Below, in pieces: positions 4,153-45,184 of a stretch of 64,000 bases of DNA. How positions within the stretch are numbered: the stretch's first letter is position 1; every line of letters starts with the position of its first letter. The notes beneath the pieces were generated by a model that searched no databases, was not told where the DNA came from, and worked only from the letters and a program-made list of their open reading frames with translations. The translations under genes were made by a program, and so were the position numbers. The DNA comes from a bacterium (GTDB lineage Bacteria > JAHJDO01). Location: the NCBI GenBank assembly GCA_030652805.1, contig JAUSPT010000032.1, positions 120,005 to 184,004 on the forward strand, written 5' to 3'.

Positions 4153-4597
4153 AACCTGTGGTCTCTTTATTGGTTAAAGTATAAACTTCGCCATCTGCGC
4201 CTGATAAATGTATTGTTAATTCATCAGCTCTTCCATCTTGATAAAATACTGCATACGGTTTAGCACACTCCAGAAGTATGTTGGTGGAGAACCTCCTTTT
4301 TCTACCAAGCTTGTTATTTAGTGCAATAAATTTTTCTGGATTTAAGGGGTCTTTTGCTACACTGACCCAGTATTCTTTATTATTAACATCAAAATCTATC
4401 CTGTGAATTACCTGCTCCATAATTGCTCTCTCCTGCACATACTTAGTGAGCTTCGATATATCCCGACACAGGTTCCTAACCTGCAAATTATCAAAAGTAT
4501 GTCTAAACAAAGGAGTAGATATTGCTGTAAGGATACTGAGTATGCTAATAACTAGAATCAACTCAATAAAGGTAAACCCTTTCTCCCGCATCTTCAT
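4118..4597 (-). CDS. gspH: Type II secretion minor pseudopilin GspH-like
   Basis: The start chosen is the ATG at 4597, which shares ATGA with the gspG stop. A longer reading from 4621 would need a TTG start. The product (159 residues) begins MKMREKGFTFIELILVIS with Gly7, Phe as mature residue 1 and Glu at +5. The body has the small beta-rich look of GspH/FimT pseudopilins. It lies between gspG and gspI in the normal T2SS order. Confidence 0.82.
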   Translation of the reverse strand: MKMREKGFTFIELILVISILSILTAISTPLFRHTFDNLQVRNLCRDISKLTKYVQERAIMEQVIHRIDFDVNNKEYWVSVAKDPLNPEKFIALNNKLGRKRRFSTNILLECAKPYAVFYQDGRADELTIHLSGADGEVYTLTNKETTGYVKIFKGFSSF

Positions 4598-5008
4598 TCG
4601 TTTGACGCACTCTCTTCCCAATTAGTAATATCATCCCCTCCGCCAACTACTCCGTCCGGTCCACAGGAGAAGAGGTCATAATCATCGCCATGCTCTCCAG
4701 GACACTTGTACTGATATGAACTACCCCATGGATCCGCTGGCATTTTTTTCTTAATATAAGGTCCCTTCCATGTCTCAAGCTCTGAAGGTTTCTCACGTAA
4801 TGCATTAAGCCCCTCTTCAGACGTAGGATATCTACCATTATCCAGTTCAAATAGCTCCAAGGCTACTGCAATATTTGCTTCAATATCTGCCTTCGCCGCT
4901 ATAATCTTTGCCTGTTTGGACCTGCCTGCAAACCTTGGAGCCACCATTGCAATAAGCACACCAATAATAATAACAACAAGCATAAGCTCTATCAGAGTGA
5001 AACCATGT

Positions 5009-5019
5009 ATTTTCTGTGC
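5009..5019 (+). repeat. Left subterminal inverted repeat of the IS
   Basis: ATTTTCTGTGC lies a few bases inside the left junction and pairs with 6406-6416. Confidence 0.75.
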
Positions 5020-5079
5020 TAGGATTGAAGAACGAAAACGATAAACAGGTAATTTAACCTTAAAACAGGAGGAAAAGGA

Positions 5080-6168
5080 ATGGATACAATTACGTATGCT
5101 GGTGTGGATCTTCATAAAGATTCGATGACTATTGCTGTAACTAATTCTCTTTCTAACGACCCTTACAACGAAGCGAAGATTACTAAAATTCACTGTAAAT
5201 GCGTTAACAAAGTCTCTGCCTTTTTTGCTGATCTTCCTCATCCATGTACAGTTGCTGTTGAGGCTGTTGGCTTCTACCACTGGTTCTGGGATCTGGTCAG
5301 TCCTCTTGCCTCTGATATCTATCTCCTGAATGCTGTTGAAGTCAGACGTTACGCAGGCAGGGACCCTAAGACTGACTCCAGAGATGCCAGACTTATTGCG
5401 CGGCTTCTTGCTTCCAACGAAATTACTCATAATAGCAAGCTCTCTGTCTTTGTCCCCGACAATAACCTCAGACCTATCAGAGAACTTGCTCGCCATCGTC
5501 ATCAAACTGCCCGTTCCCTTGCTTGCTCTAAAAATAGATTCAGACGTATCACTCTCAAAGAAAACCTTCCAGGACCAAAAACTCTTGACGCTCATCATGC
5601 TCTTCGCTGGATCAGAGGCTTTGAAAACAAAACTTCTGATATCCATAAATTTCAGCTTAGACAGCTTACTGATCAAATAATTTCTTTTGAAAGAGATGTA
5701 TCTGATATTGAAAGACAAATCCTTGACCTTACTAATAAAGCTGGTTATCAACCTCTTATGAAACTCCTTCAAACAATCCCAGGTATTGGTGATGTAGTTG
5801 CGTATACTATTATTGCAGAGATCGGCGATTTCTCCAGATTTCAAACTGCTGGACAAATCGCCTCTTTTGCAGGTCTTACTCCCAGAGTCTTTCAAAGTGG
5901 TGATTCCTGCAGGCATGGCAGTATTAATAAACAAGGACCTCCTAATCTTAGATGGGTTCTTCAGCAATCTGCATGGGTGGCTATTAGACACAGCGAATTT
6001 ATTAGAAAAATATTTAATAAAATTAGCAGGAAAGCCGGTAAGAAAAAGGCCGCTTGCGCTATTGCCAGAAAAATTCTTGTCTGGAGCTGGGCTATGGCTA
6101 AGAACAATACGGCTTTTAATAAAGACTTTATTAATAAAGATAAAGAAAAAACGGAAAGGGCAGCTTAA
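5080..6168 (+). CDS. IS110-family DEDD transposase (RNA-guided recombinase type)
   Basis: This 362-residue protein has the two IS110 domains. The N-terminal RuvC-like DEDD domain shows YAGVDLHKDSM (Asp9), VAVEAVGFYHW (Glu) and DPKTDSRDARLIARLL (two Asp). The C-terminal Tnp_20 domain shows TIPGIGDVVAYTIIAEIGDF and the GSINKQG segment with the conserved Ser. In this family the enzyme exchanges DNA strands at sites chosen by an RNA made from the element's own non-coding end. The start follows a strong CAGGAGG site. The gene runs opposite to gspG and all its neighbours. It looks intact. Confidence 0.95.
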   Translation: MDTITYAGVDLHKDSMTIAVTNSLSNDPYNEAKITKIHCKCVNKVSAFFADLPHPCTVAVEAVGFYHWFWDLVSPLASDIYLLNAVEVRRYAGRDPKTDSRDARLIARLLASNEITHNSKLSVFVPDNNLRPIRELARHRHQTARSLACSKNRFRRITLKENLPGPKTLDAHHALRWIRGFENKTSDIHKFQLRQLTDQIISFERDVSDIERQILDLTNKAGYQPLMKLLQTIPGIGDVVAYTIIAEIGDFSRFQTAGQIASFAGLTPRVFQSGDSCRHGSINKQGPPNLRWVLQQSAWVAIRHSEFIRKIFNKISRKAGKKKAACAIARKILVWSWAMAKNNTAFNKDFINKDKEKTERAA

Positions 6169-6177
6169 TAATGAAAA

Positions 6178-6360
6178 TATTTCATACTCTCTAGGATTAC
6201 ACCTGCAGCAGTGACCTTGAATTCGTTTATGAGTAAAAGGCTCAAGCCGTAAAGCTCGATAGCGTGAATAAGGCCTGCTGCAGGCGTATTTGTTCTCGTG
6301 CGGCTCTTGACCGCGAATAGTTGATTGCGACCTTTGAGAGGTTTTGAGAATATGAAATAC
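6178..6360 (+). ncRNA. Candidate bridge/seek RNA in the right end of the IS
   Basis: The right non-coding end can fold into nested stems. An outer stem pairs ATTTCATACTCTC (6179-6191) with GAGAATATGAAAT (6346-6358), 12 of 13 positions. An inner perfect stem pairs CCTGCAGCAG (6202-6211) with CTGCTGCAGG (6275-6284), and a small GCGG/CCGC hairpin lies at about 6299-6313. IS1111 elements are known to encode their target-choosing RNA downstream of the transposase gene, so length, place and structure fit. I could not assign the guide loops: no convincing match to the gspG target was found by eye. Confidence 0.55.
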
Positions 6361-6405
6361 TACATTAAAAAGCTGTGAAATTGTTATGTGAAAGTTTTTA
6401 AATAC

Positions 6406-6416
6406 GCATAGAAAAT
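6406..6416 (-). repeat. Right subterminal inverted repeat of the IS
   Basis: GCATAGAAAAT is the reverse complement of ATTTTCTATGC and matches the left repeat at 10 of 11 bases. It lies 7 bases inside the right junction. Confidence 0.75.
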
Positions 6417-6473
6417 CATAGTTAAACCCTTTTTTTGACATTTGAACTTTGATTTTTGACATTTATTTTCCTC

Positions 6474-32185: not shown

Positions 32186-33616
32186 CTAGCGCTTGAGCTT
32201 TCCGTTTGCTGTTTTGTCTAATCGGGCTACACATAGAAATTCTTTTGGAACCTTATATGAAGCTAATCTCTGATAGCAAAATTTGCGCACACTATTGATA
32301 TCAAAATCTGTTTTTGCTTTATTTTGCAGAACGATCATTGCACAGGGAAGCTGCCCATACTGAGGATGGGTAATGCCATACACAAGAGACTCCTTGATGT
32401 CAGGATGCTGATTGAGAACTGATTCCACTTCATAGGGAAAGACTTTCATGCCGGCAAAATTAATGATATGTTTTTCTCTGCCAACAAGAAACAGAAAGCC
32501 TTCTTTATCAAGTCTAGCTAGATCCCCTGTCTTAAACCAGCCGTTATGCAATACCTGCTTTTTACTTTGCCATGGAGAAAAGTATGCATCAAACATTCCT
32601 TTTCCTTTAAGATAAACTTCACCAATCCCCTTAGCATCAGCATTTACTATTTTCACTTCGTAATCTGGTAGAATTCTGCCTACTGACTCTTGCTTCGTTT
32701 TATCCTCAGAACAATTGAGAAACGGCAGGCCCACTTCAATAATTCCATACGCTTCAGTCAGTTGAAAACCAAACTTTTTATGAAAATCATTTGCTATATC
32801 AACAGGCAGCTTTACTGCTGTACACACAGCCATACGGATACGACTTAACATATGGGAAGAAAGCATATCCGATTTTGTCAGCATATGATAATGGAAAGGT
32901 GAAGCGTATATAAATGTTCCTCTGTGGGTTTTCAATTTCTCAAGCAGTAATTCAGGGAATGCGCGGCTGCAGAGAATAATTGTTGCCCCACGCCGCAGGA
33001 AAAGCAGAATCGTTACTACAAAATGAAAACTCATGGAAAGAACCCATATCACTATATCATTTGAAGTGATATTTAACCCTTTATCTGCAGCATTGGTTCT
33101 TTGAATAATGGCTTCATGGGAAATTACTACTCCTTTGCTTACCCCGGTTGTGCCTGATGAAAACCGGATAAAAGCAGGATTTAATGTATAATAATCCGCT
33201 GGAACCTGTTTCTTCGCTGCGCGTTGATATAGAAAAAACTTTCTTTCACACACACAATCAGAAAAAATTCGAAGGCTGCCATGTTTGATACACCTTTCTT
33301 TATTAGAGAGCAAAGCATTCACATCAATTTTTTCCAGTATATCATCAACTTCATACATGGATAACGACGTAGATACTGGAACAATAACTGCAGGTAAAGA
33401 CAGTACAGCCAGACTAATAATAATATAATCAATACTATCTTCACATAGTAATGCTACACGTTGAGCTGGCTGAACTCCATATGACTTTAATTCATCTGTA
33501 AGTTTCTCTACAGAAGCAAACAACTCGCCATAAGAAACCTGTTTATTCCCGTCAATGACAGCAATTTTCTTCTGAAGCTTTTTTGTTTCGCTCTTTATTA
33601 CATCTACAATATTCAT
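32186..33616 (-). CDS. AMP-forming acyl ligase of the lipid/polyketide-like locus
   Basis: The 476-residue enzyme is an ANL-family adenylating ligase. P-loop FSSGTTGVSKGVV (about 151-163), the AYGIIEVG segment, TGDLARLDKEGFLFLVGRE and the catalytic Lys near the C-terminus (GKLKR, Lys473) are all present. It would activate a carboxylic acid and load it on CoA or on one of the two ACPs of the locus. It closes the cluster and overlaps the flavoprotein gene by 4 bases. At 476 residues it is slightly short but complete. Confidence 0.88.
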   Translation of the reverse strand: MNIVDVIKSETKKLQKKIAVIDGNKQVSYGELFASVEKLTDELKSYGVQPAQRVALLCEDSIDYIIISLAVLSLPAVIVPVSTSLSMYEVDDILEKIDVNALLSNKERCIKHGSLRIFSDCVCERKFFLYQRAAKKQVPADYYTLNPAFIRFSSGTTGVSKGVVISHEAIIQRTNAADKGLNITSNDIVIWVLSMSFHFVVTILLFLRRGATIILCSRAFPELLLEKLKTHRGTFIYASPFHYHMLTKSDMLSSHMLSRIRMAVCTAVKLPVDIANDFHKKFGFQLTEAYGIIEVGLPFLNCSEDKTKQESVGRILPDYEVKIVNADAKGIGEVYLKGKGMFDAYFSPWQSKKQVLHNGWFKTGDLARLDKEGFLFLVGREKHIINFAGMKVFPYEVESVLNQHPDIKESLVYGITHPQYGQLPCAMIVLQNKAKTDFDINSVRKFCYQRLASYKVPKEFLCVARLDKTANGKLKR

Positions 33617-34914
33617 AAGTCATCATCCCATATCTGCAATGGGGTGTCTTCTGTTCCCTCTGGGACAACAGGTGTTTCAGGATCGCTGCCGTCAAGATAG
33701 ACGCCTTGTTGAATAAGCGATTTTCTCACTGCGGCAACAGCAATATGCCTAGGTTGGATGCTTTGTCGTGCCGCCAGTGATGCTGCGACACCGGCAGCCT
33801 GCCCCGTGGCAAAGCATGGTACTATAAGACGCAAGGAGTTGTCGGCAAGATAGTCAGACGAAATACAACGTCCAGCAACAAGCAATCCGTCAACGTTCTT
33901 CGGAACAAGACATCGAAAAGGAATGTCATAGTTCAACCTTGGCGGATCGTAGAGTTTGTAGCCGAGAAGATACGAGCCCAATCGCGCAATTGAGTCTTCA
34001 AAATGTCGGCTTGATCTGAGGTCATCATCGGTCAGAGTGTATTCCCCTCGGATACGACGGCTCTGCCGTACCCCAAACTGCGGCAGTGTCTCTTTGATGC
34101 GCGCATTCTCCCAACCGGGCATATGAGTGCGCAGATAGTATAAGGAGCGAAAATAATCGCGGCGCATTTGTGTCTCTGCCTTACTAACTTCCTCAGCATC
34201 TGTCACATCAACCCCTTGTAGATACCGATGACGGTCCAGCATGACACCTCCGTTCAGCCTGCTAGCTTCTGCCACAACTTTCAGGAAGTGTTCAGGGGAC
34301 TTCTTCTTAAACACCGCAACTTTTGCGCAGTCTATGCCATCAACTGTTACGCCCAGCGTCACATCGTGAGTATCACTGTCACACTTGCATCCTGCGCGAA
34401 ACGCAACATCTGCGTCAGCAGTGCAGTCTATTACAACCTTGGCAAGAATGGCCCTGCGGCCGCTCTTACTCTCGGTGAAGAAACCGCGAACGTATGCACC
34501 ATCAGTGATTGGATCACACACCAACGTGTGCAGGAGCAACTCTGCTCCTGCTTCTTCCAGCATTTCTGCAGCCTGCCACTTAAAAACCTCTGGGTCAACC
34601 GCGTAATCGCCACAGCGATTTGGACCTTGAATTGCGTCAAACGTCTCCATTCGCTTCCTGATATCCAAAGCAATACCGCCAGCTTTGGGACGAACTCCAT
34701 CCCCCATACCAAACACCCAGAGAACGTGAGCGCCTGTAATCATCCCTCCAAGATATCCATATCGTTCAACGACGAGCGTTTTCGCTCCTTCACGCGCGGC
34801 AGCAATACCGGCAGCAATACCGGCAGGACCGCCTCCAGCAACAAGCACGTCAACTGTCCTCTCAACTGGAATGCGCTGTTGTGGTTCAACTTCAATATCG
34901 TTATTGTGCATCAT
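33613..34914 (-). CDS. FAD-dependent oxidoreductase (FAD_oxidored family)
   Basis: The 433-residue flavoprotein has an N-terminal FAD fold with DVLVAGGGPAGIAAGIAAA and VVERYGYLGG, a middle VIDCTADADVAFRAG segment and a C-terminal VAGRCISSD and ATGQAAGVAASLA region. This is the FAD_oxidored (PF12831) type, whose substrates are mostly unknown. Its DNA is visibly richer in G+C than the neighbouring ligase and condensation genes, so it may have joined the locus separately. It overlaps both neighbours by 4 bases, so it is co-translated. It could reduce or desaturate the chain made here. Confidence 0.87.
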   Translation of the reverse strand: MMHNNDIEVEPQQRIPVERTVDVLVAGGGPAGIAAGIAAAREGAKTLVVERYGYLGGMITGAHVLWVFGMGDGVRPKAGGIALDIRKRMETFDAIQGPNRCGDYAVDPEVFKWQAAEMLEEAGAELLLHTLVCDPITDGAYVRGFFTESKSGRRAILAKVVIDCTADADVAFRAGCKCDSDTHDVTLGVTVDGIDCAKVAVFKKKSPEHFLKVVAEASRLNGGVMLDRHRYLQGVDVTDAEEVSKAETQMRRDYFRSLYYLRTHMPGWENARIKETLPQFGVRQSRRIRGEYTLTDDDLRSSRHFEDSIARLGSYLLGYKLYDPPRLNYDIPFRCLVPKNVDGLLVAGRCISSDYLADNSLRLIVPCFATGQAAGVAASLAARQSIQPRHIAVAAVRKSLIQQGVYLDGSDPETPVVPEGTEDTPLQIWDDDL

Positions 34915-36236
34915 AGATTCTGTTCCTCCTCTTTTGCCTCTCCTTCTAAGAGAGTGTGAGTTAATACTCCTAGTCCAGAACGCAAAGTGTGTATAATTGA
35001 ATCTATCTCATCCTTTTCCAACATCTCATCTAAATAGGAAAAGACCACATTTAGCTTGCCCTGAAACTGGTTGAAGAATATTCCAAGCCCCGGAGGAATT
35101 GGAACTCTGGGCATATGGAAAATATTATGGATTTTTTTTCCCATAAACATCGGAGAATCGTATGCAGATTCGCCAATATAGGAAAAACAAAAAGAAGCAA
35201 TCTGCCCTTTTAACGGCATCCGCATTAGATAACTTAAAACAGGTAAAGGTGCAATTCGCATCAAAAGACTTGCTTTCTCAATATCCGCAGGTAAGTCTGC
35301 CTTTATCTGATCGTAGATCTGCTGTTTAATTGATTGCAAAAGAACAGAAAAACTATCAGCCTCATTTGCTTTCACTCGAAGCAGGAAAAAGGACATATGA
35401 TTAAAGAAAATCTCTTGATGTACCTTTTCTACTGGACGCGTATCAATAGACACAGGAATTATATAATCACCTGTGAGTATACCCCTTTTGAGAAAAATGC
35501 TGTGCAAAGCCTCCATGGAAATTGCCAATGCATACGGCATAAGCATTAAATAACCTGCTTTATTATATGCAGTTTCGATAATTGCAGATGTCTGGCGTTT
35601 ATCAAGCGAGATTATCTTAAATTTAAATCCCTGATTGTTAACCACTGAATGTAAAGGCAAAAAGCGGGATTTATTCTCTGACAATTGTACCAGCTTCCTA
35701 TTTACACGCTTACCTGCTTCAAATTTTTCCTGCCACTTACATAGATGAGCTGGTTCTGTAAGAGAAATCCTCTGGGAATAATCCATATTCAAGAATGCTT
35801 CAGCTCCTCTGACGTCAAACAAACAATGGTCAAACACTACCCCTAGAAAACTTGTTTCTCCCGTATGGACAAGATGAAATGCAAGATGCTCCTTAATACT
35901 GTTAAAGGGCATGTTTACTCCTTGCTCCAGTGTAAAGAGCACTTTGCTAAATGTTGCATTATCATCAAGGCGGTAAGTCCTGATGTTCGGAGAGAGCATT
36001 TTATTATTGGAATAAATCTTCCAGTATGGAGCAAGGTTGTAATTCCGCATCGGTCTGCCATTTACAACCGGAAATTTTTTAATGAATTTGTTCAGGCATT
36101 CCCGAAGTGTTGTCTCATCAAGCGTGCCTTTCAGTTGAAGAACAACCTGAAACATGTTCCCAACGCCAGTTTCCTTTTTGTTAATATGGTTAATTGTATG
36201 AATGATCCAGTCAACACCAGTTAAATAGCGTTTCAT
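34911..36236 (-). CDS. Stand-alone condensation-like acyltransferase
   Basis: The 441-residue protein has the CAT-like fold of NRPS condensation domains and wax-ester synthases. The N-terminal half has GTLDETTLRECLNKFIKKFP and a DHCLFD site (His137, Asp141), the counterpart of HHxxxDG with Asp in place of the first His. The C-terminal half has NHMSFFLLRV and SYIGESAYD. It would pass an acyl group from an ACP to an amine or alcohol. It lies 1 base after the second ACP and overlaps the flavoprotein gene by 4 bases. Confidence 0.7.
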   Translation of the reverse strand: MKRYLTGVDWIIHTINHINKKETGVGNMFQVVLQLKGTLDETTLRECLNKFIKKFPVVNGRPMRNYNLAPYWKIYSNNKMLSPNIRTYRLDDNATFSKVLFTLEQGVNMPFNSIKEHLAFHLVHTGETSFLGVVFDHCLFDVRGAEAFLNMDYSQRISLTEPAHLCKWQEKFEAGKRVNRKLVQLSENKSRFLPLHSVVNNQGFKFKIISLDKRQTSAIIETAYNKAGYLMLMPYALAISMEALHSIFLKRGILTGDYIIPVSIDTRPVEKVHQEIFFNHMSFFLLRVKANEADSFSVLLQSIKQQIYDQIKADLPADIEKASLLMRIAPLPVLSYLMRMPLKGQIASFCFSYIGESAYDSPMFMGKKIHNIFHMPRVPIPPGLGIFFNQFQGKLNVVFSYLDEMLEKDEIDSIIHTLRSGLGVLTHTLLEGEAKEEEQNL

Positions 36237-36237
36237 T

Positions 36238-36483
36238 CTAACTCATTCTGCTGATATATGACGCCAGCAAGTGGATGGTTTGAGAGTTTTCTCGTGTTAG
36301 TCCTGATTCCATTAACTTTAGATTAAATGTTTTTTCAATAAACACCAGAAGCTCCACAAAGCTAAATGAATCAACTCCTAGTGTGTGAAGAGGAGCATTT
36401 GAAGAAATTGTTGAAGAGTCTACATCTAATATTGTAGCAATCTCTTGGATCAGTGTTTCCTCGATATGTTTTACAGTCAACAT
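36238..36483 (-). CDS. Acyl carrier protein (second)
   Basis: The 81-residue protein has the four-helix ACP pattern with the phosphopantetheine Ser39 in LGVDSFSFVELLVFIE. It sits between the catalytically empty ketosynthase (15-base gap) and the condensation-like gene, so it may present the finished chain to the latter. It is distinct from the first ACP (38688-38969). Confidence 0.9.
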   Translation of the reverse strand: MLTVKHIEETLIQEIATILDVDSSTISSNAPLHTLGVDSFSFVELLVFIEKTFNLKLMESGLTRENSQTIHLLASYISRMS

Positions 36484-36498
36484 GCAGCTTGTATCCTT

Positions 36499-37539
36499 TT
36501 ACACAGTCAATTTAATAACAGCTTTTTCTCCTCCACAATTATACCTAATACAACTGATTCTCCGTATTTGAGCAGGTTCAGTCTTTGTGCATAGATTTAT
36601 ATTGTAGGGATTATGGCTAACTAGGCATGCGTAGTGTAGCTGCTTTTTTAACATGAGAGCAGCAGCAGCACAATTAAAACTTGTTCCAGTCATCATACTG
36701 CCGAATATTGGCGAATACCCTGAGATGCAAACACCTGATTCTGCAGCCTTTTGATATTCTTTCTCGTCTCCTGCAATACCGTCGGCATCAAGAATGAACA
36801 TATCCGGTCTATTTTTTTCAACCTCTTTATCATTTAAAGAGATGGCTGTTATTTCACAATATTTCTTATGAGATTTCTCCAGTGTCATCAGAAAGAATAC
36901 ACTTCCCTCTCCTGGTACTGCTACAGGCGTTTTTGAAAAATTAAATGGTTTGATTCTGCCATCTCCAGCAATTCGCAACTTTTGCCTGCAGATGTATTCC
37001 ATAACTGTGCCGCATTCATCAACGCTTCCAACAAGAACATATTCACACCGTTTCTCATAAAGCCAGGCTCGCGCAAGGATAAGAGCCTGGTGAAACGAAA
37101 ATGCAAACTGAGTAAGTGTAATGGTTGGGCCACGGCTATCTAACACAGATGTAATATAAGACGCTGCTGCATTATGGACAGAATGAGAAAATATGGTTGG
37201 AGAAGCATTCCTATCACCATATTCAAGCATATCATCCAGAAAGCGGAATGTTGTTACATGCGGACCAAATGCTGTTGAGACAATAATACCAAGAGAAGAT
37301 TTCTTTTTATTAAAATTAATGCCACTATCCACTACAGCGTCACTGGCTGCTAATACTGCCATTTTACTGAATCTATCCGCACGACGTATCCCGCCCAAAA
37401 TTCTTTTGTCTGTGATTGATTCTTCCTTCACATGATAACCAGAATCTTCAGGCTTTATCCATCCATGCCTCAATGCGTCATCATAGCGGTTAATTCCCCG
37501 TCCCCCGCTAAAAACAACACCTATTCCAAAAATATTCAT
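36499..37539 (-). CDS. Ketosynthase-like protein lacking catalytic residues (chain-length-factor-like)
   Basis: The 346-residue protein has a thiolase/KAS fold and aligns with the active ketosynthase encoded before it. The whole triad is changed: Ala146 stands at the Cys position (GPTITLTQFAFS), Asp253 replaces the first His (LDADGIAG) and Thr284 replaces the second (FGSMMTGTS). It overlaps the ketosynthase gene by 4 bases. In type II polyketide and aryl polyene systems, an active KS pairs with an inactive partner that sets chain length, so the same role is inferred here. Confidence 0.82.
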   Translation of the reverse strand: MNIFGIGVVFSGGRGINRYDDALRHGWIKPEDSGYHVKEESITDKRILGGIRRADRFSKMAVLAASDAVVDSGINFNKKKSSLGIIVSTAFGPHVTTFRFLDDMLEYGDRNASPTIFSHSVHNAAASYITSVLDSRGPTITLTQFAFSFHQALILARAWLYEKRCEYVLVGSVDECGTVMEYICRQKLRIAGDGRIKPFNFSKTPVAVPGEGSVFFLMTLEKSHKKYCEITAISLNDKEVEKNRPDMFILDADGIAGDEKEYQKAAESGVCISGYSPIFGSMMTGTSFNCAAAALMLKKQLHYACLVSHNPYNINLCTKTEPAQIRRISCIRYNCGGEKAVIKLTV

Positions 37540-38660
37540 GCTCCTCTCCCAATAACAATCGCAGCATTGTTGCCGCCAAAGGCAAGGGACGTAGAAAGGG
37601 CAAAAGATCCGTGTATGCTCGTCTTCTCTCTAACCGGCGTTATAGGTATTTCATCATCCTGATTTACAAAACCAGCGCTTGCAGGTATCCATCCTTCCAG
37701 AAGCGCAGCACCTGTAAAAACAGCTTCCAATCCTCCTGCGCCGCCAAGTGTATGCCCCGTAAATCCCTTTGTAGAAAGAACCTTAATATCCTTACCAAAA
37801 ACCCTTGCTAGAACCATACCCTCAACTTTATCATTATCCCGGGTTGCAGTGCCGTGAGCATTAACAAAACAGACCTCTTGAGAACTAATGCATGCTTCAG
37901 AAAGCGCTCTCTGAATCGCTGCTTCCAATCCTGTACCATCAGGTCTTGGAGCAGTAAGATGATAGGCGTCTGCTGAAGCGCCGTATCCAGCAAGATACAA
38001 TCTAGGGGCATTGCCCGAGGCATTGCCTCTCTTACAAGCACATGCTTCTCTCTCAAGCACAAGAATTCCAGCACCTTCCCCTAAGTTTAATCCTTTACGA
38101 TCTCTGTCAAATGGAGCGCATAATGATTCACTGACAATCCCAAGTGCCCCAAAACCGCATATAGGAATACGGTTCAATTCGTCTGCGCCACCGGCAATAG
38201 CGATATCACACTCTCCATTCCTTAACCAGGATAACGCTACTCCAATCGCATCAGCGCCTGAAGAACATGCATTAACCACAGTAACACGTGGACCTTTTGC
38301 TCCTATAGTATTTGCAACAGCTTGGGCAAGGTTTCCTTTTAAAAATCGGTCGACAGAATCCATCGGGGCTTTTCCCGAACTCCTGTACGAATGATAGAAG
38401 TCAACATCATTTAACTGGCTTGCCACAGTAGTCCCAAGACATACTCCTACACGAAAATCCTCAATGCGTTTTTTTAGTTCTGCCTTATTTAGGGCTTCCT
38501 CTACTGCGCACAAAGCAAGACTTAAAGTGCTCATTCTGTGTTCAAAGACTGGTTTTTTATTTACTTGTCCGCGCTGAAATGTATCCAGTGTTTCTGTGAG
38601 ATTTGTACCTGCAGCAGAAATCGCACCCATGCCTGTTATTATTATGTTTGTTTTCTCCAT
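37536..38660 (-). CDS. Beta-ketoacyl-ACP synthase (FabF-like)
   Basis: The 374-residue enzyme has a complete Cys-His-His triad: Cys132 in VVNACSSGADAI, His269 in VNAHGTATRDND and His303 in STKGFTGHTLGGAGG. Other KAS II signatures (PFDRDRKGLNLGEGAG and SLAFGGNNAA) are present. It is shorter than FabF (about 410). It elongates an ACP-bound chain with malonyl units, presumably with the inactive partner encoded by the overlapping next gene. No ketoreductase or dehydratase gene lies in the locus, so those steps would come from elsewhere or not occur. Confidence 0.93.
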   Translation of the reverse strand: MEKTNIIITGMGAISAAGTNLTETLDTFQRGQVNKKPVFEHRMSTLSLALCAVEEALNKAELKKRIEDFRVGVCLGTTVASQLNDVDFYHSYRSSGKAPMDSVDRFLKGNLAQAVANTIGAKGPRVTVVNACSSGADAIGVALSWLRNGECDIAIAGGADELNRIPICGFGALGIVSESLCAPFDRDRKGLNLGEGAGILVLEREACACKRGNASGNAPRLYLAGYGASADAYHLTAPRPDGTGLEAAIQRALSEACISSQEVCFVNAHGTATRDNDKVEGMVLARVFGKDIKVLSTKGFTGHTLGGAGGLEAVFTGAALLEGWIPASAGFVNQDDEIPITPVREKTSIHGSFALSTSLAFGGNNAAIVIGRGA

Positions 38661-38687
38661 GAAACTCCGTTGAGAGAAAATGCGAAT

Positions 38688-38969
38688 TTATGCTGCTGTA
38701 TTCTCGTATATATATTGTGCCAGAGTGTCGATTGAATAAAATATTTTTCTGCCCTGATCCATATCTTTGATTTCTAACCCAAAATTCCGCTGCAATAGCA
38801 CAACAATTTCTACTGCATCTAAAGAATCCAGTCCAAGTCCTTCGCCAAACAGAACCTCGTCATCTTTAATATCTTCAGGTTTTACATTCTCTAATGATAG
38901 GCTGCTTACAAGCAGTTTTTTTAACTTGTTTCGTATTTCCTTCAATTCTTTTTGTTTCTGCTCTGCCAT
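38688..38969 (-). CDS. Acyl carrier protein (first)
   Basis: The 93-residue ACP carries Ser49 in GLGLDSLDAVEIVVLLQ, a canonical phosphopantetheine site, and a Lys/Glu-rich N-terminal helix. It precedes the ketosynthase gene by 27 bases and is the likely elongation carrier. A 111-base gap separates it from the PagL-like gene. Confidence 0.92.
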   Translation of the reverse strand: MAEQKQKELKEIRNKLKKLLVSSLSLENVKPEDIKDDEVLFGEGLGLDSLDAVEIVVLLQRNFGLEIKDMDQGRKIFYSIDTLAQYIYENTAA

Positions 38970-39080
38970 TTAATCTTCTCCTATATTTAGCGGTATTCAA
39001 CAAGCGATATCATATCCTCTTATTGCTCTTTTTTCAAGGAACAATTCCAACACGGTATAAGAGTGGATTTTTGGCAACCA

Positions 39081-39689
39081 TTAGAATGGGAAACTGATTC
39101 CGATAATGATTTTGCTTGAATTAAGTGGTACGTTGGGTTGCTTCATGCCAGCGTTAGATATGTGATGAAATCTATATTCTAACACAAATGAACGGCCTTT
39201 TCTGGTCTTGTAACTAAGTCCTAGTCCCGCTTGATAATTCCCGCAGATATTGGCGCCCATGCCAGGTATGTTCGCTTCCGTATAGACAGGACCGCCGCCC
39301 ACGAAGAAATATGGCATGTATCTTTGCGATGTCTTCAGCGTCCAGGATGAAAGAAAGTTCAAGCCAAAAATCCGGCCATCATCAGGCTTAATAAGATAAG
39401 ACACAGGTAGTTCTATCAGGAAGTTATGACTTCCGCGGTACCAGTCACGTCCAGTATCTTTGAGTTTTCGCCTATATCGCAGAATTACATCCACTGTCTC
39501 AACATGTTCACGAGTTTTGCCGAGTCCCGGATGCGTGGTACTGTAGCCGCTCAGCAACATCCATGATTCATCAGTTTGATCCGTATCGGCAAAGGCAACG
39601 TTAATTGCAACAACTGTGAACAGCAGTATCAGGCAGATTAATTTCATGGCGCACACCAAATCACTGAAGAGCATCTTTGTTCTGTTCAT
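39081..39689 (-). CDS. PagL-like lipid A 3-O-deacylase
   Basis: The start is ATG 39689, sharing ATGA with the end of the acyltransferase gene; another ATG at 39647 would give a tighter signal peptide. The product has a signal peptide (LICLILLFTVVAINVAFA) and an eight-strand beta-barrel pattern. EYRFHHISNAGMKQPN matches the PagL active-site segment (His and Ser as in HxSNAG). The Glu of the PagL triad seems replaced by Asn (VPLNSS). It would cut an acyl chain from lipid A in the outer membrane. Confidence 0.82.
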   Translation of the reverse strand: MNRTKMLFSDLVCAMKLICLILLFTVVAINVAFADTDQTDESWMLLSGYSTTHPGLGKTREHVETVDVILRYRRKLKDTGRDWYRGSHNFLIELPVSYLIKPDDGRIFGLNFLSSWTLKTSQRYMPYFFVGGGPVYTEANIPGMGANICGNYQAGLGLSYKTRKGRSFVLEYRFHHISNAGMKQPNVPLNSSKIIIGISFPF

Positions 39690-40603
39690 TCTTCCCATAC
39701 ATCACGAAATAAAAAATATTGATAAGGGTGTTTGTGTGTATATGCTTCAAGCAACGCGGCAAATTTTTGAACCCATTGCTGTAGTTGATGGTGTTTATCC
39801 TTTTCACTAATATAGCATGGATACAGCACATTAGATACATCAACAATGTACTGATAAGTAGATACTTTCTCTGACAATAGAACAACCACCGGACATCCTG
39901 CCGCTGCTGCAATTGTAAAGCCGCCGTATGGGAACCAGGCTTTCTCTCCAAGAAATGAAACTTCTACGGCTTTAAACCCATATCTGCGGTCACCCATAAT
40001 GGACACAATATGTTTTTCCTTTAATTTATTCATGATTTCAACAATTCCACCAAGATCTTGTTCAGGAGAAATAATCTTGATATGGTTCTGTTCCCTGCTG
40101 ATACGCAGTGAACTTTGCACTGCAGGGTTATCTTCCGGACGCATAACAAGATACACCGTTTTTTCCAGTTTTTTTAATGCTGTCATAGCGACCTGCCAGT
40201 TACCAACATGAGCAGTTAGTAAAATTATTCCATGAGGAGAATTCTGAATCAGGGACATCAATTGTTCATATCCATGTAATTGGATATCAAATATTTCCTG
40301 CCCTGAAACAATAGCGTATCGATCAATAAGCTGTTTTCCCTGACTTACAAACAATCTATATACGTGTCTCAGCCTTTTTACAAAACCATGTGATGGAAAC
40401 CTTCTGTTAATATACGCCAAAGCTCCACAAACAGCTGCTTGGTCAAACAGCACATAATAGATACAGACAATATATAATAATCCATACGCTCCTCTTAACC
40501 CAAAAAAGCGCAGAGAAATCCTAAAAAACCAGAATCCAAGGGCATTCCCTCTTTTTTTTGCTTCAATTTTTCGAGATGCTTTAGCTTTTTTCATTTTTAC
40601 CAT
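39686..40603 (-). CDS. LpxL/HtrB-like acyltransferase
   Basis: The 305-residue protein belongs to the lipid A late acyltransferases. It has a basic N-terminus, a membrane segment (about 38-62), LLTAHVGNWQVA (His and, four residues on, Gln), then VYLVMRPEDNPAV, SIMGDRRYG and a C-terminal FLFRDVWEE. LpxL enzymes use HxxxxE/D; here Gln replaces the acidic residue, so activity may be altered. ATG 40603 is preferred over TTG 40606. It is the first gene of the locus and overlaps the PagL-like gene, suggesting the made chain is put on lipid A or a related lipid. Confidence 0.82.
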   Translation of the reverse strand: MVKMKKAKASRKIEAKKRGNALGFWFFRISLRFFGLRGAYGLLYIVCIYYVLFDQAAVCGALAYINRRFPSHGFVKRLRHVYRLFVSQGKQLIDRYAIVSGQEIFDIQLHGYEQLMSLIQNSPHGIILLTAHVGNWQVAMTALKKLEKTVYLVMRPEDNPAVQSSLRISREQNHIKIISPEQDLGGIVEIMNKLKEKHIVSIMGDRRYGFKAVEVSFLGEKAWFPYGGFTIAAAAGCPVVVLLSEKVSTYQYIVDVSNVLYPCYISEKDKHHQLQQWVQKFAALLEAYTHKHPYQYFLFRDVWEE

Positions 40604-40675
40604 CAACTTTTTTTGCGTTCAAGTCTGTTTTTTCTATGTAAAGATTATCAAGCGGGCTTTTGACCCCAAACTGAT

Positions 40676-40845: not shown

Positions 40846-42489
40846 ATGTTTTGTTTTCAATGTCAGGAAACGGCTAAAAACCAAGGCTGCACCGTAAAAG
40901 GCGTGTGCGGAAAACCCGAGGAGACCGCGGACCTGCAGGATCTGCTCATTTACGTGTGTAAAGGAATCTCGATCTATGGTGAAAAGTTAAAGGAAATGGG
41001 CACTATGGGCAAGAACGCAGCCCACTTCGTGTGCAAGGCACTTTTTACCACCATCACCAATGTGGCATGGGACGATGATGTCGTCATCGGCCGGATCAAG
41101 GAGGGTTTCAGGGTTCGGGACGCAGTCAGGGAAAAGGCCGGAGCCGCCATGTCCGGCGCGCTTCCGGATTGCGCCACCTGGTTCTCAGAGGACAAGGAGG
41201 CCATCATGGCCAAGGCCATGTCCGATGAAGTGCGCATCACCACCGCTGAAAACGAGGACGTGCGCTCCCTCAGAGAGCTGCTCATCATCGGCTGCAAGGG
41301 AATCGCAGCTTATGCCGATCATGCCGCGATTCTTGGTCATGAGAAGGATGATATCTACGGCTTCCTCATGGAGGCCCTGGCATCCACCACCAAGGATCTT
41401 TCAACGGATGAGATGATCGCCATGGTCATGAAGGCAGGGGAGATGGCTGTAAATACTATGGCCCTTCTGGATGAGGCCAATACAACTGCCTATGGCAATC
41501 CCGAGATCACGGAGGTCAACATCGGCGTCAGAAACAATCCCGGAATCCTGATCTCCGGCCACGACTTGAAAGACATGGAAGAACTGCTCAGGCAAACCAA
41601 AGACGGGTGTGATGTTTACACCCACGGGGAAATGCTGCCGGCCAACTACTATCCGGCCTTTAAGAAGTATGACCATTTCGTGGGCAACTACGGCGGGTCG
41701 TGGTGGCATCAGAACAAGGAATTCGAATCCTTTAACGGCCCCATCATTCTGACAACCAACTGCCTGATTCCCATCAAAAAGGAAAACACCTATCTGAAAC
41801 GGCTCTTTACTACCGGCGTCGTCAACTATCCCGGGGCCAAACACATCGCGGACAGGCCGGAAGGCGGGACAAAGGATTTCTCCCCGGTCGTGGCGCTGGC
41901 GAAAACATGCAAGTCACCGGAAGAGATAGAATCTGGCAAGATCGTTGGTGGGTTCGCCCATAACCAGGTCCTGGCCCTGGCTGACAAAGTGATCGACGCC
42001 GTTAAGTCAGGAGCCATCAAACGCTTTGTTGTCATGGCCGGGTGCGACGGCCGCCAAAAAGCCCGAAGTTATTTTACTGAAGTGGCCGAGAAGCTGCCCG
42101 AAGACACGGTAATTCTCACCGCCGGATGCGCCAAATACCGCTACAACAAGCTGGCACTGGGTGACATCGGCGGTATTCCCCGCGTGCTGGACGCCGGTCA
42201 GTGCAACGACTCCTACTCCCTGGCGGTGATCGCCTTGAAACTCAAGGAAGCATTCGGACTGAACGACATCAATGAGCTACCCGTCTCTTACGACATCGCC
42301 TGGTACGAGCAAAAAGCAGTGACCGTGTTGCTGGCCCTGCTGTTTCTCGGCGTCAAAGGAATTCGCCTGGGTCCCACATTGCCGGCCTTCCTGTCTCCCA
42401 ATGTGGCCAAGGTCCTGGTGGAAAAATTCGACATCAAACCTATTGGAACCGTGCAGGATGATATTGTGGCAATGATGAAAGGAGAATAA
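40846..42489 (+). CDS. hcp: Hydroxylamine reductase / hybrid cluster protein
   Basis: The 547-residue protein begins [20 protein letters not shown]. Its Cys3, Cys6, Cys15 and Cys21 form the CxxC-x8-C-x5-C cluster motif of anaerobic hybrid cluster proteins. The hybrid-cluster ligands are visible: [41 protein letters not shown] and [10 protein letters not shown]. The enzyme handles nitric oxide or hydroxylamine in anaerobes. A perfect AAAGGAGG site precedes it. It is far richer in G+C than its surroundings and is followed by an attC-like site, both signs of transfer. No hcr reductase gene is present. Confidence 0.96.
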
Positions 42490-42510
42490 TACGGTTTGAA
42501 TGAAAAATAC

Positions 42511-42584
42511 GATATAACAAGGCGCTCCACCGGACGGCAATTCCGCTGCGCTCCATTGCCGCCGGTGAGCTTGGTCGTTCTACT
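42511..42584 (+). other. Integron attC-like recombination site after hcp
   Basis: The 70-base element has a left TATAACAAGGCGCTC end and a right GAGCTTGGTCGTT end, the R''/L'' and L'/R' boxes of attC. In between, arms CACCGGACGGCAAT and ATTGCCGCCGGTG pair fully except for one extra A, the kind of extrahelical base seen in attC. The loop TCCGCTGCGCTCC is also common in such sites. The right box (GTTCTAC) departs from GTTRRRY. A run of T follows, so a terminator role cannot be excluded. Confidence 0.68.
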
Positions 42585-42635
42585 TTTTTCACATAGAAAT
42601 CTTAACAGATTATTTTTCTCTTTTCAATTGCCTAA

Positions 42636-42669
42636 GAACCAGGTTGGTTCAAAAGAACCAAATTGGTTC
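42636..42669 (+). promoter_or_regulatory. Duplicated operator-like dyad GAACCA-N3-TGGTTC
   Basis: Two copies of a 15-base dyad lie at 42636-42650 (spacer GGT) and 42655-42669 (spacer AAT), offset by 19 bases, so the centres are about two helical turns apart. They lie about 100 bases before the CrtI-like gene. The pattern looks like a double binding site for a dimeric regulator that I cannot name. Confidence 0.55.
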
Positions 42670-42764
42670 AAATAGGAAATAAACAAAGTAGCTCGCTTAT
42701 TTCAACTTGATATTGTTGAAGCTTTTCTTTAAAGTAATATCTAATTTTACTATAAAGATAGAAG

Positions 42765-44354
42765 ATGATACAGGCGAATAATCAAGTTCCGGACAGGTGT
42801 GATGTTGTAGTCATCGGAGCAGGGGCAGGTGGACTCACCGCAGCAGGGCTTCTCTCAAGGGTTGGTCTTCAAACAGTAGTTCTTGAGACTCAGCCACAGC
42901 CGGGGGGATACCTGGCAGGTTTTCAGCGACAGGGCTTTCAGTTCAACACTTCCATCCAATGGCTCAATCAATGCGGTCCCGGCGGATTCGTCTACAACAT
43001 CTGGCGTCATTTAGGCGGCGAGTTTCCAACCTGCGCACCGTTGACTCGCATACACAGATATAAAAGCGATTCGTTCGACTATTTGCTGAGTTCCAATCCT
43101 ATCGACTTACAGGATTGCCTTATCAAGGACTTTCCTGATGATGAGAGCGGTATCAGAGCTTTTTTCAAGGATGGGGAAAGACTTGGACAGCGGCTGAATG
43201 TCCTGAACAGCAGGACAATGGCGAAAGAGACCATGCCATTCTTTGAAAGAGTTATTCGCAACTTACAAATGCTGTTTTGGGCAATTCCTGTCGCTAAATA
43301 CGTGATGAGCCCTGTCGAGAAAGGGCTGCGCCGCTATTTCAGTACGGAGGGTGCTCAAAAGATATTCTGCAGTCAAGAATCCTTTATGTCCGTTATGGTG
43401 CCTATCGCTTGGGCATTCGCCGGAAATTTTCAAACTTGTCCCAAAGGAGGAAGTCGCACACTGGCTTTATGGCTGTGTGAGAGAATCAGATCTGCCGGGT
43501 CGAAAGTATTGCTGAACCAGCACGTGGAAAGAGTGCTGTTAAACGCTAGAAAAGAAGCGACCGGTGTATTACTGGCAGACGGAAGTTCTCTGAGAGCTCG
43601 ATACGTGATTGCAGCCTGCGACGTACAGATGCTCTATGAAAAGATGCTGCCGGACGGCTGTATTCCGGTACGGATGCGAAAAGCACTGCATAATGCCGAT
43701 ATTTATCATTCCAGCTTCAGCATATTTCTGGGACTGGATTGCGATGCTTCTTCTTTGGGATTCGGAGAAGAAGTATTGAATCTCACTAGGAGCGATGTAT
43801 CACGTGAAGATCACATGAGTGGTGACCCACATCGCACGATCATGGTCGTCATCGCGCCTTCAGTTCGTGATTCTTCTCTGGCACCGGAAGGCAAGGGAAC
43901 CCTTATGATACATTGTCCGGCGTATCTCGATTACGAAGACAATTGGAGAACCGGCAAGGGGCTGGCGAGGGGCGAGCCCTACAGAGCATTGAAAAGAAAG
44001 TTTGCCGACATCCTGCTGGCCCGGATTGAGAAAACCTTCGCTCCCGGGCTGAGGAAGCACATAGAGGTGATGGAGATTGCAACACCTGTAACATACTGGC
44101 GATATACGGGCAACACCAAGGGAAGCATTTCAGGGATTAAACCAACGGGAAGAAATATCAGAATCAGTGTAGCACGTTACAAAACGCCTGTGAAGAATTT
44201 ATTGTTGGGAGGTCATTGTGCAGAATACGGCGGGGGTGTTCCAATGGCTGTAAAGGCCGGTGCGAATGCTAGTCTCATCGTCATGAAAGACATGAAAAGA
44301 GCGGCTTACGATGAACTGAAAGACGTAATAAACGGCGTAGAAAGGCACCACTGA
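42765..44354 (+). CDS. Phytoene-desaturase-like FAD oxidoreductase
   Basis: The 529-residue protein is of the CrtI / retinol-saturase type. It has an N-terminal DVVVIGAGAGGLTAAGLLS and a VLETQPQPGGYLAGF signature. A long substrate domain follows, then PKGGSRTLALWLCERIRSAG and, at the C-terminus, NLLLGGHCAEYGGGVPMAVKAG. Such enzymes desaturate, saturate or isomerise polyenes using FAD. No carotenoid genes lie nearby. The nearest polyene-like chemistry is the lipid locus on the other side of hcp, so a link is possible but unproven. It lies 275 bases after hcp, behind the duplicated operator. Confidence 0.85.
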   Translation: MIQANNQVPDRCDVVVIGAGAGGLTAAGLLSRVGLQTVVLETQPQPGGYLAGFQRQGFQFNTSIQWLNQCGPGGFVYNIWRHLGGEFPTCAPLTRIHRYKSDSFDYLLSSNPIDLQDCLIKDFPDDESGIRAFFKDGERLGQRLNVLNSRTMAKETMPFFERVIRNLQMLFWAIPVAKYVMSPVEKGLRRYFSTEGAQKIFCSQESFMSVMVPIAWAFAGNFQTCPKGGSRTLALWLCERIRSAGSKVLLNQHVERVLLNARKEATGVLLADGSSLRARYVIAACDVQMLYEKMLPDGCIPVRMRKALHNADIYHSSFSIFLGLDCDASSLGFGEEVLNLTRSDVSREDHMSGDPHRTIMVVIAPSVRDSSLAPEGKGTLMIHCPAYLDYEDNWRTGKGLARGEPYRALKRKFADILLARIEKTFAPGLRKHIEVMEIATPVTYWRYTGNTKGSISGIKPTGRNIRISVARYKTPVKNLLLGGHCAEYGGGVPMAVKAGANASLIVMKDMKRAAYDELKDVINGVERHH

Positions 44355-44450: not shown

Positions 44451-44633
44451 ATGTCTATACTACAGGTAGATAATAGTAGTGAAAAAAGAGAAATGGAGTT
44501 TGAACTGGACTACTTGAAAAAGCTCTCTATTGGTGAACGAATGCAAATGATGCTTCAAAAATCTAAAGAGATGGCAAAAATTCTTAGAAGAAATGAAGAT
44601 AGAAAAACTACTTTCATTACTCAGAGACAATAA
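44451..44633 (+). CDS. Small charged protein upstream of a nucleotidyltransferase
   Basis: The 60-residue protein is helical and charged (KREMEFELDYLKKLSIGERM), with a good AAGGAGA ribosome binding site. It overlaps the next gene by 41 bases in a different frame. I do not recognise the family. Short helical proteins in this position often partner the nucleotidyltransferase that follows, sometimes as an antitoxin, but that role is inferred from context only. Confidence 0.6.
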   Translation: MSILQVDNSSEKREMEFELDYLKKLSIGERMQMMLQKSKEMAKILRRNEDRKTTFITQRQ

Positions 44634-45042
44634 GGTAGAATTTGTCCTGATTGGCGCAGTCACCTTCCCTGTCTATGGTTACTCAAGATCCACATTAGAT
44701 ACTGATATCTTTATAAGACCAACAATCGAGAATGCAAAAAACACACTGATAAGCCTGGAAGAATTTGGTTATGATGTGTCATGCTTAACTCCTGAATCGC
44801 TTCTGAAGAAAAAAACTCTTATCCGTCAATATATTGTGGAAACAGACATTCATCCATTTGTCAAAGGTATTTCATTTGAAGAGGTTTGGGAGAATAAAGT
44901 TGAGAACTTCTTTGGTAAACAGAAAGTTTATTTTGCTTCTCTAGAAGATATTATAAAAATGAAGAAAGCTGCTGGAAGAGTTAAAGATAGAGAAGATTTG
45001 AAAGTCCTCAAAAGATTATTAAAGCAAGAAAGACCTAATTAG
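44593..45042 (+). CDS. Nucleotidyltransferase-fold protein
   Basis: The 149-residue protein has the minimal nucleotidyltransferase core: FVLIGAVTFPVYGYSRSTLD and then TDIFI, with Asp36 and Asp38 as the metal-binding pair after the Ser. The second Gly of the usual GG turn is Ala. The C-terminal part (SLEDIIKMKKAAGRVKDREDL) matches the end of the family that includes AbiEii-like and DUF6036 proteins. It may be the toxin or modifying half of a two-gene system with the small protein before it. No ribosome binding site is obvious, so translation is probably coupled. Confidence 0.72.
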   Translation: MKIEKLLSLLRDNKVEFVLIGAVTFPVYGYSRSTLDTDIFIRPTIENAKNTLISLEEFGYDVSCLTPESLLKKKTLIRQYIVETDIHPFVKGISFEEVWENKVENFFGKQKVYFASLEDIIKMKKAAGRVKDREDLKVLKRLLKQERPN

Positions 45043-45184
45043 CAGTTTCTATTCTGTAATTCCTACAATAACTACTAATATCGGCGCAGCAATAAGAGAA
45101 TAAAAGAGGGCTCAAATCTTTTTTTGCATGTATTTGCAAAATATTGCTTGTATTTGCTTAATTTTTCTGCTAGAATCTTGAATT

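What the first reader, a model, noticed from the sequence alone, without database searches (positions are those of the whole stretch)
32186..40606. Ten-gene ACP-dependent lipid/polyketide-like locus without reductive enzymes, ending in LPS-type acyl transfer
Seen: LpxL-like acyltransferase, PagL-like deacylase, ACP, ketosynthase, inactive ketosynthase partner, second ACP, condensation-like acyltransferase, FAD oxidoreductase and AMP ligase, most genes overlapping by 4 bases. Known: KS plus inactive KS plus ACPs plus an AMP ligase is the core of type II polyketide and aryl polyene clusters. Missing: ketoreductase, dehydratase, thioesterase, LolA and MMPL exporter, so it is not a standard aryl polyene set. 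Inference: an acid activated by the ligase is elongated on ACP, joined by the condensation-like enzyme, and placed on a membrane lipid whose acyl chain PagL may first remove.
Basis: partly seen in the sequence, partly recalled or inferred. Interest (0 to 1): 0.78.

Follow-up and report, generated by a model that had tools for sequence, protein, structure and literature searches.

The report
Half of a polyene-lipid gene cluster
The nine genes are one half of a larger bacterial gene set that probably builds a polyene-type lipid and exports it to the outer membrane; the 'missing' enzymes lie on another contig of the same genome, so this is an elaborate variant of a known pathway rather than a new kind of pathway.

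Summary
The genes are real, but there are nine, not ten, and four of the eight junctions show 4-base overlaps. All nine are under purifying selection and conserved in the genus. The central claim, that reductive enzymes, dehydratase and exporter are missing, is true only of the window. Contig C31 of the same genome carries a ketoreductase, two hot-dog dehydratase domains, LolA, MMPL, a DUF3261-like protein, KS/CLF, two B12 radical-SAM enzymes and a GT2-DUF2062 gene. It stops exactly where complete clusters in other phyla continue with LpxL-ACP-KS-CLF-ACP-condensation-FAD-ligase. A sister genome has GT2-LpxL-PagL contiguous.

Thirteen cluster proteins match E. coli aryl-polyene (Ape) proteins. 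The GT2 and LpxL genes match the two halves of the fused protein ApeJ. One radical-SAM enzyme scores 644 bits (cut-off 360) against TIGR04072, the ladderane-type lipid family, and a PaaK-type ligase is close to flexirubin FlxY.

Best reading: a composite aryl-polyene/ladderane-like outer-membrane lipid cluster. Its ACP2-condensation-FAD-ligase tail is an optional module, and the PagL-like gene is an optional accessory. The product is unknown. PagL lacks the catalytic Glu (Asn instead), and LpxL has HX4Q instead of HX4E.

The parts
39686..40606 (-). LpxL-like acyltransferase; matches the C-terminal half of E. coli ApeJ; HX4Q instead of HX4E
   Evidence: PF03279 61.5 bits; ApeJ residues 258-550, 26%, E 2.6e-14; Q138 invariant in 12 relatives
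39081..39698 (-). PagL-like outer-membrane protein; His179/Ser181 kept, catalytic Glu140 of PDB 2ERV is Asn193
   Evidence: PF09411; alignment to 2ERV; same place in G002 and G004
38688..38969 (-). ACP1, ApeE-type acyl carrier protein
   Evidence: NF006617 77 bits over its cut-off 70, as is E. coli ApeE; ApeE 38%
37536..38660 (-). KSa, active ketosynthase (Cys-His-His kept), ApeO-like; lacks about 25 N-terminal residues found in relatives
36499..37539 (-). KSb, catalytically dead KS partner (chain-length-factor type, PF13723 match)
   Evidence: KS fold Z 27
36238..36483 (-). ACP2, second carrier protein
   Evidence: PF00550; beside COND in nearly every relative whose contig reaches that far
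34911..36236 (-). COND, condensation/BAHD-superfamily acyltransferase with HxxxD motif
33613..34914 (-). FAD oxidoreductase (PF12831); a divergent relative that replaced the native gene in this slot
   Evidence: 23-31% to all other occupants except G002, native gene absent from this genome
32186..33616 (-). AMP-dependent acid ligase, last gene of the operon
   Evidence: PF00501, PF13193; 53-95% in relatives at the same place
42765..44354 (+). CrtI-type flavin desaturase; orthologues sit beside the cluster in G002 (93%) and in a Desulfobacterales genome (55%)
44593..45060 (+). NTase-like gene whose second copy (93% over 278 bp) ends contig C31; likely recombination or assembly joint between the two cluster halves

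Best explanation
The locus is the distal half of a composite aryl-polyene-type cluster, with ladderane-type radical-SAM and CrtI additions, that makes a polyene (probably ring-capped) acyl chain and mounts it on an outer-membrane glycolipid. Inferred order of events: (1) The AMP ligase loads a carboxylic acid, probably an aromatic or modified starter, onto ACP2, where the FAD enzyme may oxidise it. (2) KSa/KSb and the KS enzymes of the other half elongate on ACP1/ACP3. The ketoreductase and two hot-dog dehydratases encoded on contig C31 give conjugated double bonds, and the B12 radical-SAM and CrtI-type enzymes modify the chain. (3) COND, the GT2-DUF2062 enzyme with the LpxL-like enzyme (together equivalent to ApeJ), and the PlsC-like enzyme transfer the chain to a sugar/lipid anchor. 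(4) LolA-MMPL-DUF3261 carry it to the outer membrane, where PagL may trim an ester-linked chain. Shown by sequence: gene content, order, homology, catalytic residues, split location. Inferred: substrates, order of steps, product.
For: Contig C31 of the same genome holds SDR/KR, CrtI, KS3, ACP3, PlsC, PaaK, rSAM/SPASM with ApeP-like C-terminus, LolA, MMPL, DUF3261-like, DH, KS2, CLF2, rSAM1, rSAM2 and GT2, ending after GT2. In Desulfobacterales, Desulfuromonadales, Nitrospirota and a Myxococcota-labelled MAG, GT2 is followed by LpxL-ACP1-KSa-KSb-ACP2-COND-FADox-ligase as far as the contigs reach. Sister genome G004 has GT2-LpxL-PagL contiguous. In G002, two halves of one disrupted GH43-type gene flank the gap between GT2/CrtI and LpxL. 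Ape matches: KS3-ApeR 44%, KR-ApeQ 43%, KSa-ApeO 33%, ACP1-ApeE, ACP3-ApeF, GT2 and LpxL to the two halves of ApeJ, MMPL-ApeM, LolA-ApeL, DH-ApeI, hot-dog-ApeP, PlsC-ApeD. Tree: KS3+ApeR 100/99. NCBIfam: TIGR04072 644 bits over 360; FlxY 471 under 520; LolA2_flexi 115 under 125.
Against: COND, FADox, ligase and PagL have no Ape counterpart. The DUF3261-like and KSb/CLF2 matches to ApeN/ApeC are weak or absent. No thioesterase is found in the genus cluster. LpxL and PagL lack the canonical Glu. No ammonia-lyase or chorismate-lyase-type starter gene was identified in the loci examined. KSa+ApeO is a long-branch join. The two halves are not on one contig in this genome.
Confidence: 0.6

Rival explanations
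1. The cluster makes a ladderane-like or polyunsaturated fatty acid (anaerobic PUFA route) for ordinary membrane lipids, not an aryl polyene glycolipid; the radical-SAM and CrtI enzymes do the main chemistry.
For: rSAM2 is an over-cut-off member of TIGR04072. The part list overlaps the candidate ladderane loci of Kuenenia and Desulfotalea: GT, phytoene-desaturase-like, FabZ, FabG, two rSAM, PaaK, several FabF, ACP, polysaccharide deacetylase (PMC2649909, PMC4790861).
Against: LolA-MMPL-DUF3261 and the split ApeJ point to outer-membrane delivery of a glycolipid, and no LpxL, condensation or PF12831 gene is named in the published Kuenenia gene table. No ladderane was found in Desulfotalea (PMC2649909).
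Confidence: 0.24
2. One reading: a self-contained nine-gene locus that elongates an acid without reduction and puts it on lipid A after PagL removes a chain.
For: The nine genes are contiguous in the window; PagL and LpxL are adjacent in three genomes of the genus; LpxC is present.
Against: KR, DH and exporter genes are in the same genome in the syntenic partner locus. In complete relatives the nine genes are the tail of the larger cluster. The Glu of both PagL and LpxL is lost.
Confidence: 0.07
3. The locus in this genome is a decaying remnant left by an inversion between two NTase copies.
For: Contig C31 ends inside a second NTase copy; the FAD gene was replaced; KSa is shortened.
Against: All nine genes are intact with dN/dS 0.04-0.29; the first half is intact too.
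Confidence: 0.06
4. The two halves are in one bin by contamination or strain mixing.
For: An assembly of 102 contigs with estimated contamination 2.23; the NTase copies differ by 7%.
Against: G002 and G004, separate assemblies, carry both halves, and G004 joins GT2 to LpxL-PagL on one contig.
Confidence: 0.03

Closest known systems
E. coli CFT073 aryl polyene cluster (apeA-R; PMC8253772)
   Same: KS/CLF, second KS, KR, two DH, two ACPs, LolA-MMPL-DUF3261 in the same order, GT2+LpxL acyltransferase (fused as ApeJ), PlsC-type acyltransferase; 13 proteins match
   Different: No counterpart in E. coli of the radical-SAM enzymes, CrtI-type enzymes, second KS/CLF pair, PaaK, COND, FADox or PagL; no clear ApeA, ApeG, ApeB or ApeK in the genus cluster; ApeH is not matched by the ligase in BLAST
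Ladderane-type / Desulfotalea-Geobacter FASII clusters with TIGR04072 radical-SAM (PMC2649909, PMC4790861)
   Same: TIGR04072 rSAM over cut-off, CrtI-like desaturase, several FabF including dead ones, PaaK, GT, FabG, FabZ; polysaccharide deacetylase and methyltransferase in some relatives
Flexirubin clusters (FlxY, FlxB, LolA2)
   Same: PaaK-type ligase 471 bits to FlxY, KR 290 to FlxB, LolA 115 to LolA2_flexi
   Different: All below curated cut-offs; no dialkylresorcinol (DarA/DarB) genes recognised in the loci examined
Condensation/BAHD acyltransferases (PapA5, wax ester synthase, NRPS C domains, AzeD)
   Same: Fold (Z 21-24, 332-384 residues aligned, rmsd about 5) and HxxxD motif
   Different: 9-14% identity; no Pfam or NCBIfam family covers it; substrate unknown

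Membership tests
Aryl polyene (APE) cluster | KS/CLF pair with dead partner | tested here: met
   KSa keeps Cys-His-His, KSb lacks all three; KSa closest to ApeO 33%
Aryl polyene (APE) cluster | Ketoreductase and dehydratases (ApeQ, ApeP, ApeI) | tested here: met
   On contig C31: KR 43% to ApeQ, ApeP-like C-terminus of rSAM/SPASM, ApeI-like DH
Aryl polyene (APE) cluster | LolA-MMPL-DUF3261 export genes (ApeL-M-N) | tested here: met
   Same order on C31; ApeM hmm E 1e-29, ApeL E 9e-6, ApeN only E 0.05
Aryl polyene (APE) cluster | GT2/LpxL-type acyltransferase (ApeJ) and PlsC-type ApeD | tested here: met
   ApeJ functions split into two genes
Aryl polyene (APE) cluster | Thioesterase ApeK and ApeG | tested here: not met
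   Not found in the genus cluster; a 4HBT thioesterase is present in relatives. Hence not filed as a strict APE cluster.
Aryl polyene (APE) cluster | Aryl polyene product | not testable with these tools
   Needs chemistry
TIGR04072 ladderane-type lipid cluster | B12 radical-SAM protein over the curated cut-off | tested here: met
   644 bits vs 360
TIGR04072 ladderane-type lipid cluster | Phytoene-desaturase-like enzyme, PaaK, FabG, FabZ, several FabF nearby | tested here: met
TIGR04072 ladderane-type lipid cluster | Synteny and orthology with anammox loci | not tested
Flexirubin cluster | Curated flexirubin families over cut-off | tested here: not met
   FlxY 471/520, FlxB 290/340, LolA2 115/125
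PagL lipid A 3-O-deacylase | His-Ser-Glu triad in an outer-membrane barrel | tested here: not met
   His and Ser kept, Glu is Asn in all five sequences; family match PF09411 60.7 bits
LpxL/HtrB acyltransferase | HX4(D/E) motif | tested here: not met
   HX4Q in all 12; family match PF03279 met
Condensation/BAHD acyltransferase superfamily | HxxxD motif and two-lobe CAT-like fold | tested here: met

The most novel reading that the evidence does not exclude
The ACP2-COND-FADox-ligase tail is a transferable finishing module: it travels with the TIGR04072 radical-SAM enzyme but without KS genes nearby in another phylum (G024/G064). With PagL it would make a new kind of lipid, for example lipid A carrying a radical-SAM-modified polyene in place of a removed acyl chain.
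Probability: 0.12. Interest if true: 0.75.

Novelty: new variant of a known kind. Interest (0 to 1): 0.45.

Why it matters
The result joins two literatures, aryl polyenes/flexirubins and ladderane-type radical-SAM lipid clusters, in one conserved gene order shared by Desulfobacterota, Nitrospirota and a small phylum known here from one genus. Clusters called 'ladderane' by genome-mining tools occur in many non-anammox phyla although no product is known (PMC9902471). The APE-type export and attachment genes predict where the product should be sought: in the outer membrane, as a glycolipid. It also shows how a contig-limited reading can make a pathway look incomplete.

Tried and rejected
PDB sequence search found nothing for the condensation-like protein and no PagL match by single sequence; the profile found 2ERV. 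KSa and KSb both hit a recent KS heterodimer, 9s5h, whose identity could not be read, so it was not used. The census for the condensation protein found it in 6 of 385 genomes, all in the genus or the G024 phylum, so wider spread rests on the collection scan. Direct comparison with anammox loci was not done for lack of a handle to such a genome; gene tables in papers were used instead. The X. doucetiae APE-lipid paper is not held.
Full report
WHAT IS THERE. On the minus strand at 32186-40606 lie nine intact genes: LpxL-like, PagL-like, ACP1, KSa, KSb, ACP2, a condensation-like protein (COND), an FAD oxidoreductase (FADox) and an AMP ligase. The finding says ten; its own list names nine. Overlaps of four bases occur at four of eight junctions. 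Against sister genomes all nine have dN/dS between 0.04 and 0.29. KSa keeps Cys-His-His; KSb keeps none of them in 15 sequences. COND has no Pfam or NCBIfam match. Its invariant motif FDHxxxDxxGAE and predicted fold (AzeD Z 23.6, CDA condensation domain 22.4, wax ester synthase 22.1, PapA5 20.8; model mean pLDDT 68) place it in the condensation/BAHD acyltransferase superfamily.

THE MISSING ENZYMES ARE ELSEWHERE IN THE GENOME. A scan with a COND alignment gave 20 loci in Desulfobacterota, Nitrospirota, Deferribacteres-labelled and related MAGs. Where contigs are long enough, the nine genes (PagL apart) are the tail of a larger, strongly ordered cluster: KR (SDR) - CrtI - KS3 - ACP3 - PlsC - PaaK - rSAM/SPASM - LolA - MMPL - DUF3261 - DH - [thioesterase] - KS2 - CLF2 - B12-rSAM1 - B12-rSAM2 - GT2/DUF2062 - LpxL - ACP1 - [deacetylase] - KSa - KSb - ACP2 - COND - FADox - ligase. 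The window's own genome carries the first part, from KR to GT2, on contig C31. That contig stops 252 bases after GT2, inside a second copy (93% over 278 bp) of the window gene at 44593-45060.

THE TWO HALVES BELONG TOGETHER. In sister genome G004, GT2, LpxL and PagL are contiguous. In G002, GT2 is followed tail-to-tail by the orthologue (93%) of the window's CrtI-type gene at 42765-44354, and the contigs that end beyond CrtI and beyond LpxL carry the two parts of one broken GH43-type gene (the GH43 name is my reading of the sequence). In a Desulfobacterales genome a 55% homologue of the same CrtI gene sits at the cluster's other end. In the window genome the joint is either an inversion between two NTase copies or an assembly switch at that repeat. 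The NTase locus lies elsewhere in G002.

RELATION TO KNOWN CLUSTERS. Compared with the 18 Ape proteins of E. coli CFT073: KS3-ApeR 44%, KR-ApeQ 43%, KSa-ApeO 33%, ACP1-ApeE 38%, ACP3-ApeF 37%, GT2 to the N-terminal half and LpxL to the C-terminal half of ApeJ, the C-terminus of the rSAM/SPASM protein to ApeP, MMPL-ApeM, LolA-ApeL, DH-ApeI (profile) and PlsC-ApeD (profile). ACP1 and ApeE both pass the same NCBIfam cut-off. A KS tree pairs KS3 with ApeR (100/99) and KSa with ApeO (96/92, long-branch warning). NCBIfam gives rSAM2 as TIGR04072 'rSAM_ladder_B12', 644 bits against a cut-off of 360, and puts PaaK, KR and LolA below but near flexirubin cut-offs. The part list overlaps the candidate ladderane loci of Kuenenia and the syntenic loci of Desulfotalea and Geobacter described in PMC2649909 and PMC4790861. 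No ladderane was detected in Desulfotalea in that study, and clusters labelled ladderane by antiSMASH occur in many phyla without known product (PMC9902471).

WHAT IS SPECIAL. (1) ACP2-COND-FADox-ligase is an optional tail. In a sample of 385 genomes TIGR04072 is over cut-off in 11 and COND present in 6, five of them shared. G038 has LpxL-ACP1-KSa-KSb without the tail, while G024 and G064 have rSAM2-ACP2-COND-FADox-ligase with no KSb orthologue. (2) The FADox slot is kept, but the window and G002 carry a divergent FAD_oxidored (23-31% to all others, 97% to each other, 51% GC against 39% for the window). It replaced the native gene that G004 and G001 still have (about 60-64% to Desulfobacterales); the native gene is absent from the window genome. 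(3) PagL directly follows LpxL in three genomes of the genus and lies near the cluster in two distant lineages (36% and 27%), but was not seen in three others. Against 2ERV its His and Ser are kept and the Glu is Asn. (4) The LpxL-like enzyme has Gln in place of the HX4E glutamate in all 12 relatives, whereas ApeJ has Glu (sequence). The triad of PagL and the HX4(D/E) rule of LpxL are established knowledge, cited from memory.

MECHANISM (inferred). The genus makes lipid A precursors (LpxC in 4 of 5 genomes). The most likely scheme is a type II, APE-like assembly of a polyene acyl chain. Loading is by the AMP ligase onto ACP2 with possible FAD oxidation, elongation by KS/CLF pairs, reduction and dehydration by the C31 enzymes, and modification by B12-radical-SAM and CrtI-type enzymes. 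Transfer to a glycosylated lipid is by GT2, the LpxL-like enzyme, PlsC and COND, and export by LolA-MMPL-DUF3261. PagL, if active, would trim an ester in the outer membrane. Only gene content, order, homology and catalytic residues are shown here.

VERDICT. The interpretation of an incomplete, non-APE locus is wrong at genome level, and the idea of acyl transfer to a membrane lipid remains plausible. It is a new variant of a known kind.

Noticed in passing
window 33613-34914; L009:8292-9482; L007:3132-4304: In-place replacement of the FAD oxidoreductase by a very divergent, GC-richer relative with 4-base overlaps kept at both ends.
   Followed up: yes
window 40846-44354: HCP/hybrid-cluster-like gene (54% GC) and CrtI-type gene (49% GC) form a GC-rich, divergently transcribed insert between the two cluster halves in a 38.6% GC window.
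   Followed up: partly
window 44593-45060 and L079:19702-19956: NTase-like gene copy at the C31 contig end (93%): likely inversion or assembly joint.
   Followed up: partly
L079:6149-7618: Radical-SAM/SPASM protein fused to an ApeP-like hot-dog dehydratase domain.
   Followed up: partly
L016:4724-6157, L024:3681-5165, L027, L028: A third B12-radical-SAM gene after FADox in several relatives, absent from the window.
   Followed up: no
L010:6286-12013, L012: Mini-module rSAM2-ACP2-COND-FADox-ligase with no KS next to it in another small phylum.
   Followed up: partly
L007:1385-3036; L009:7423-8262: Different inserted ORFs (REP-transposase-like; phage antirepressor-like, by eye) between FADox and ligase in two sister genomes.
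   Followed up: no
window 5080-6168: IS110-type transposase-like ORF (by eye) lying within the pseudopilin gene region (4594-6462).
   Followed up: no
window 37536-38660: KSa of this genus lacks about 25 residues near the N-terminus that relatives have.
   Followed up: no
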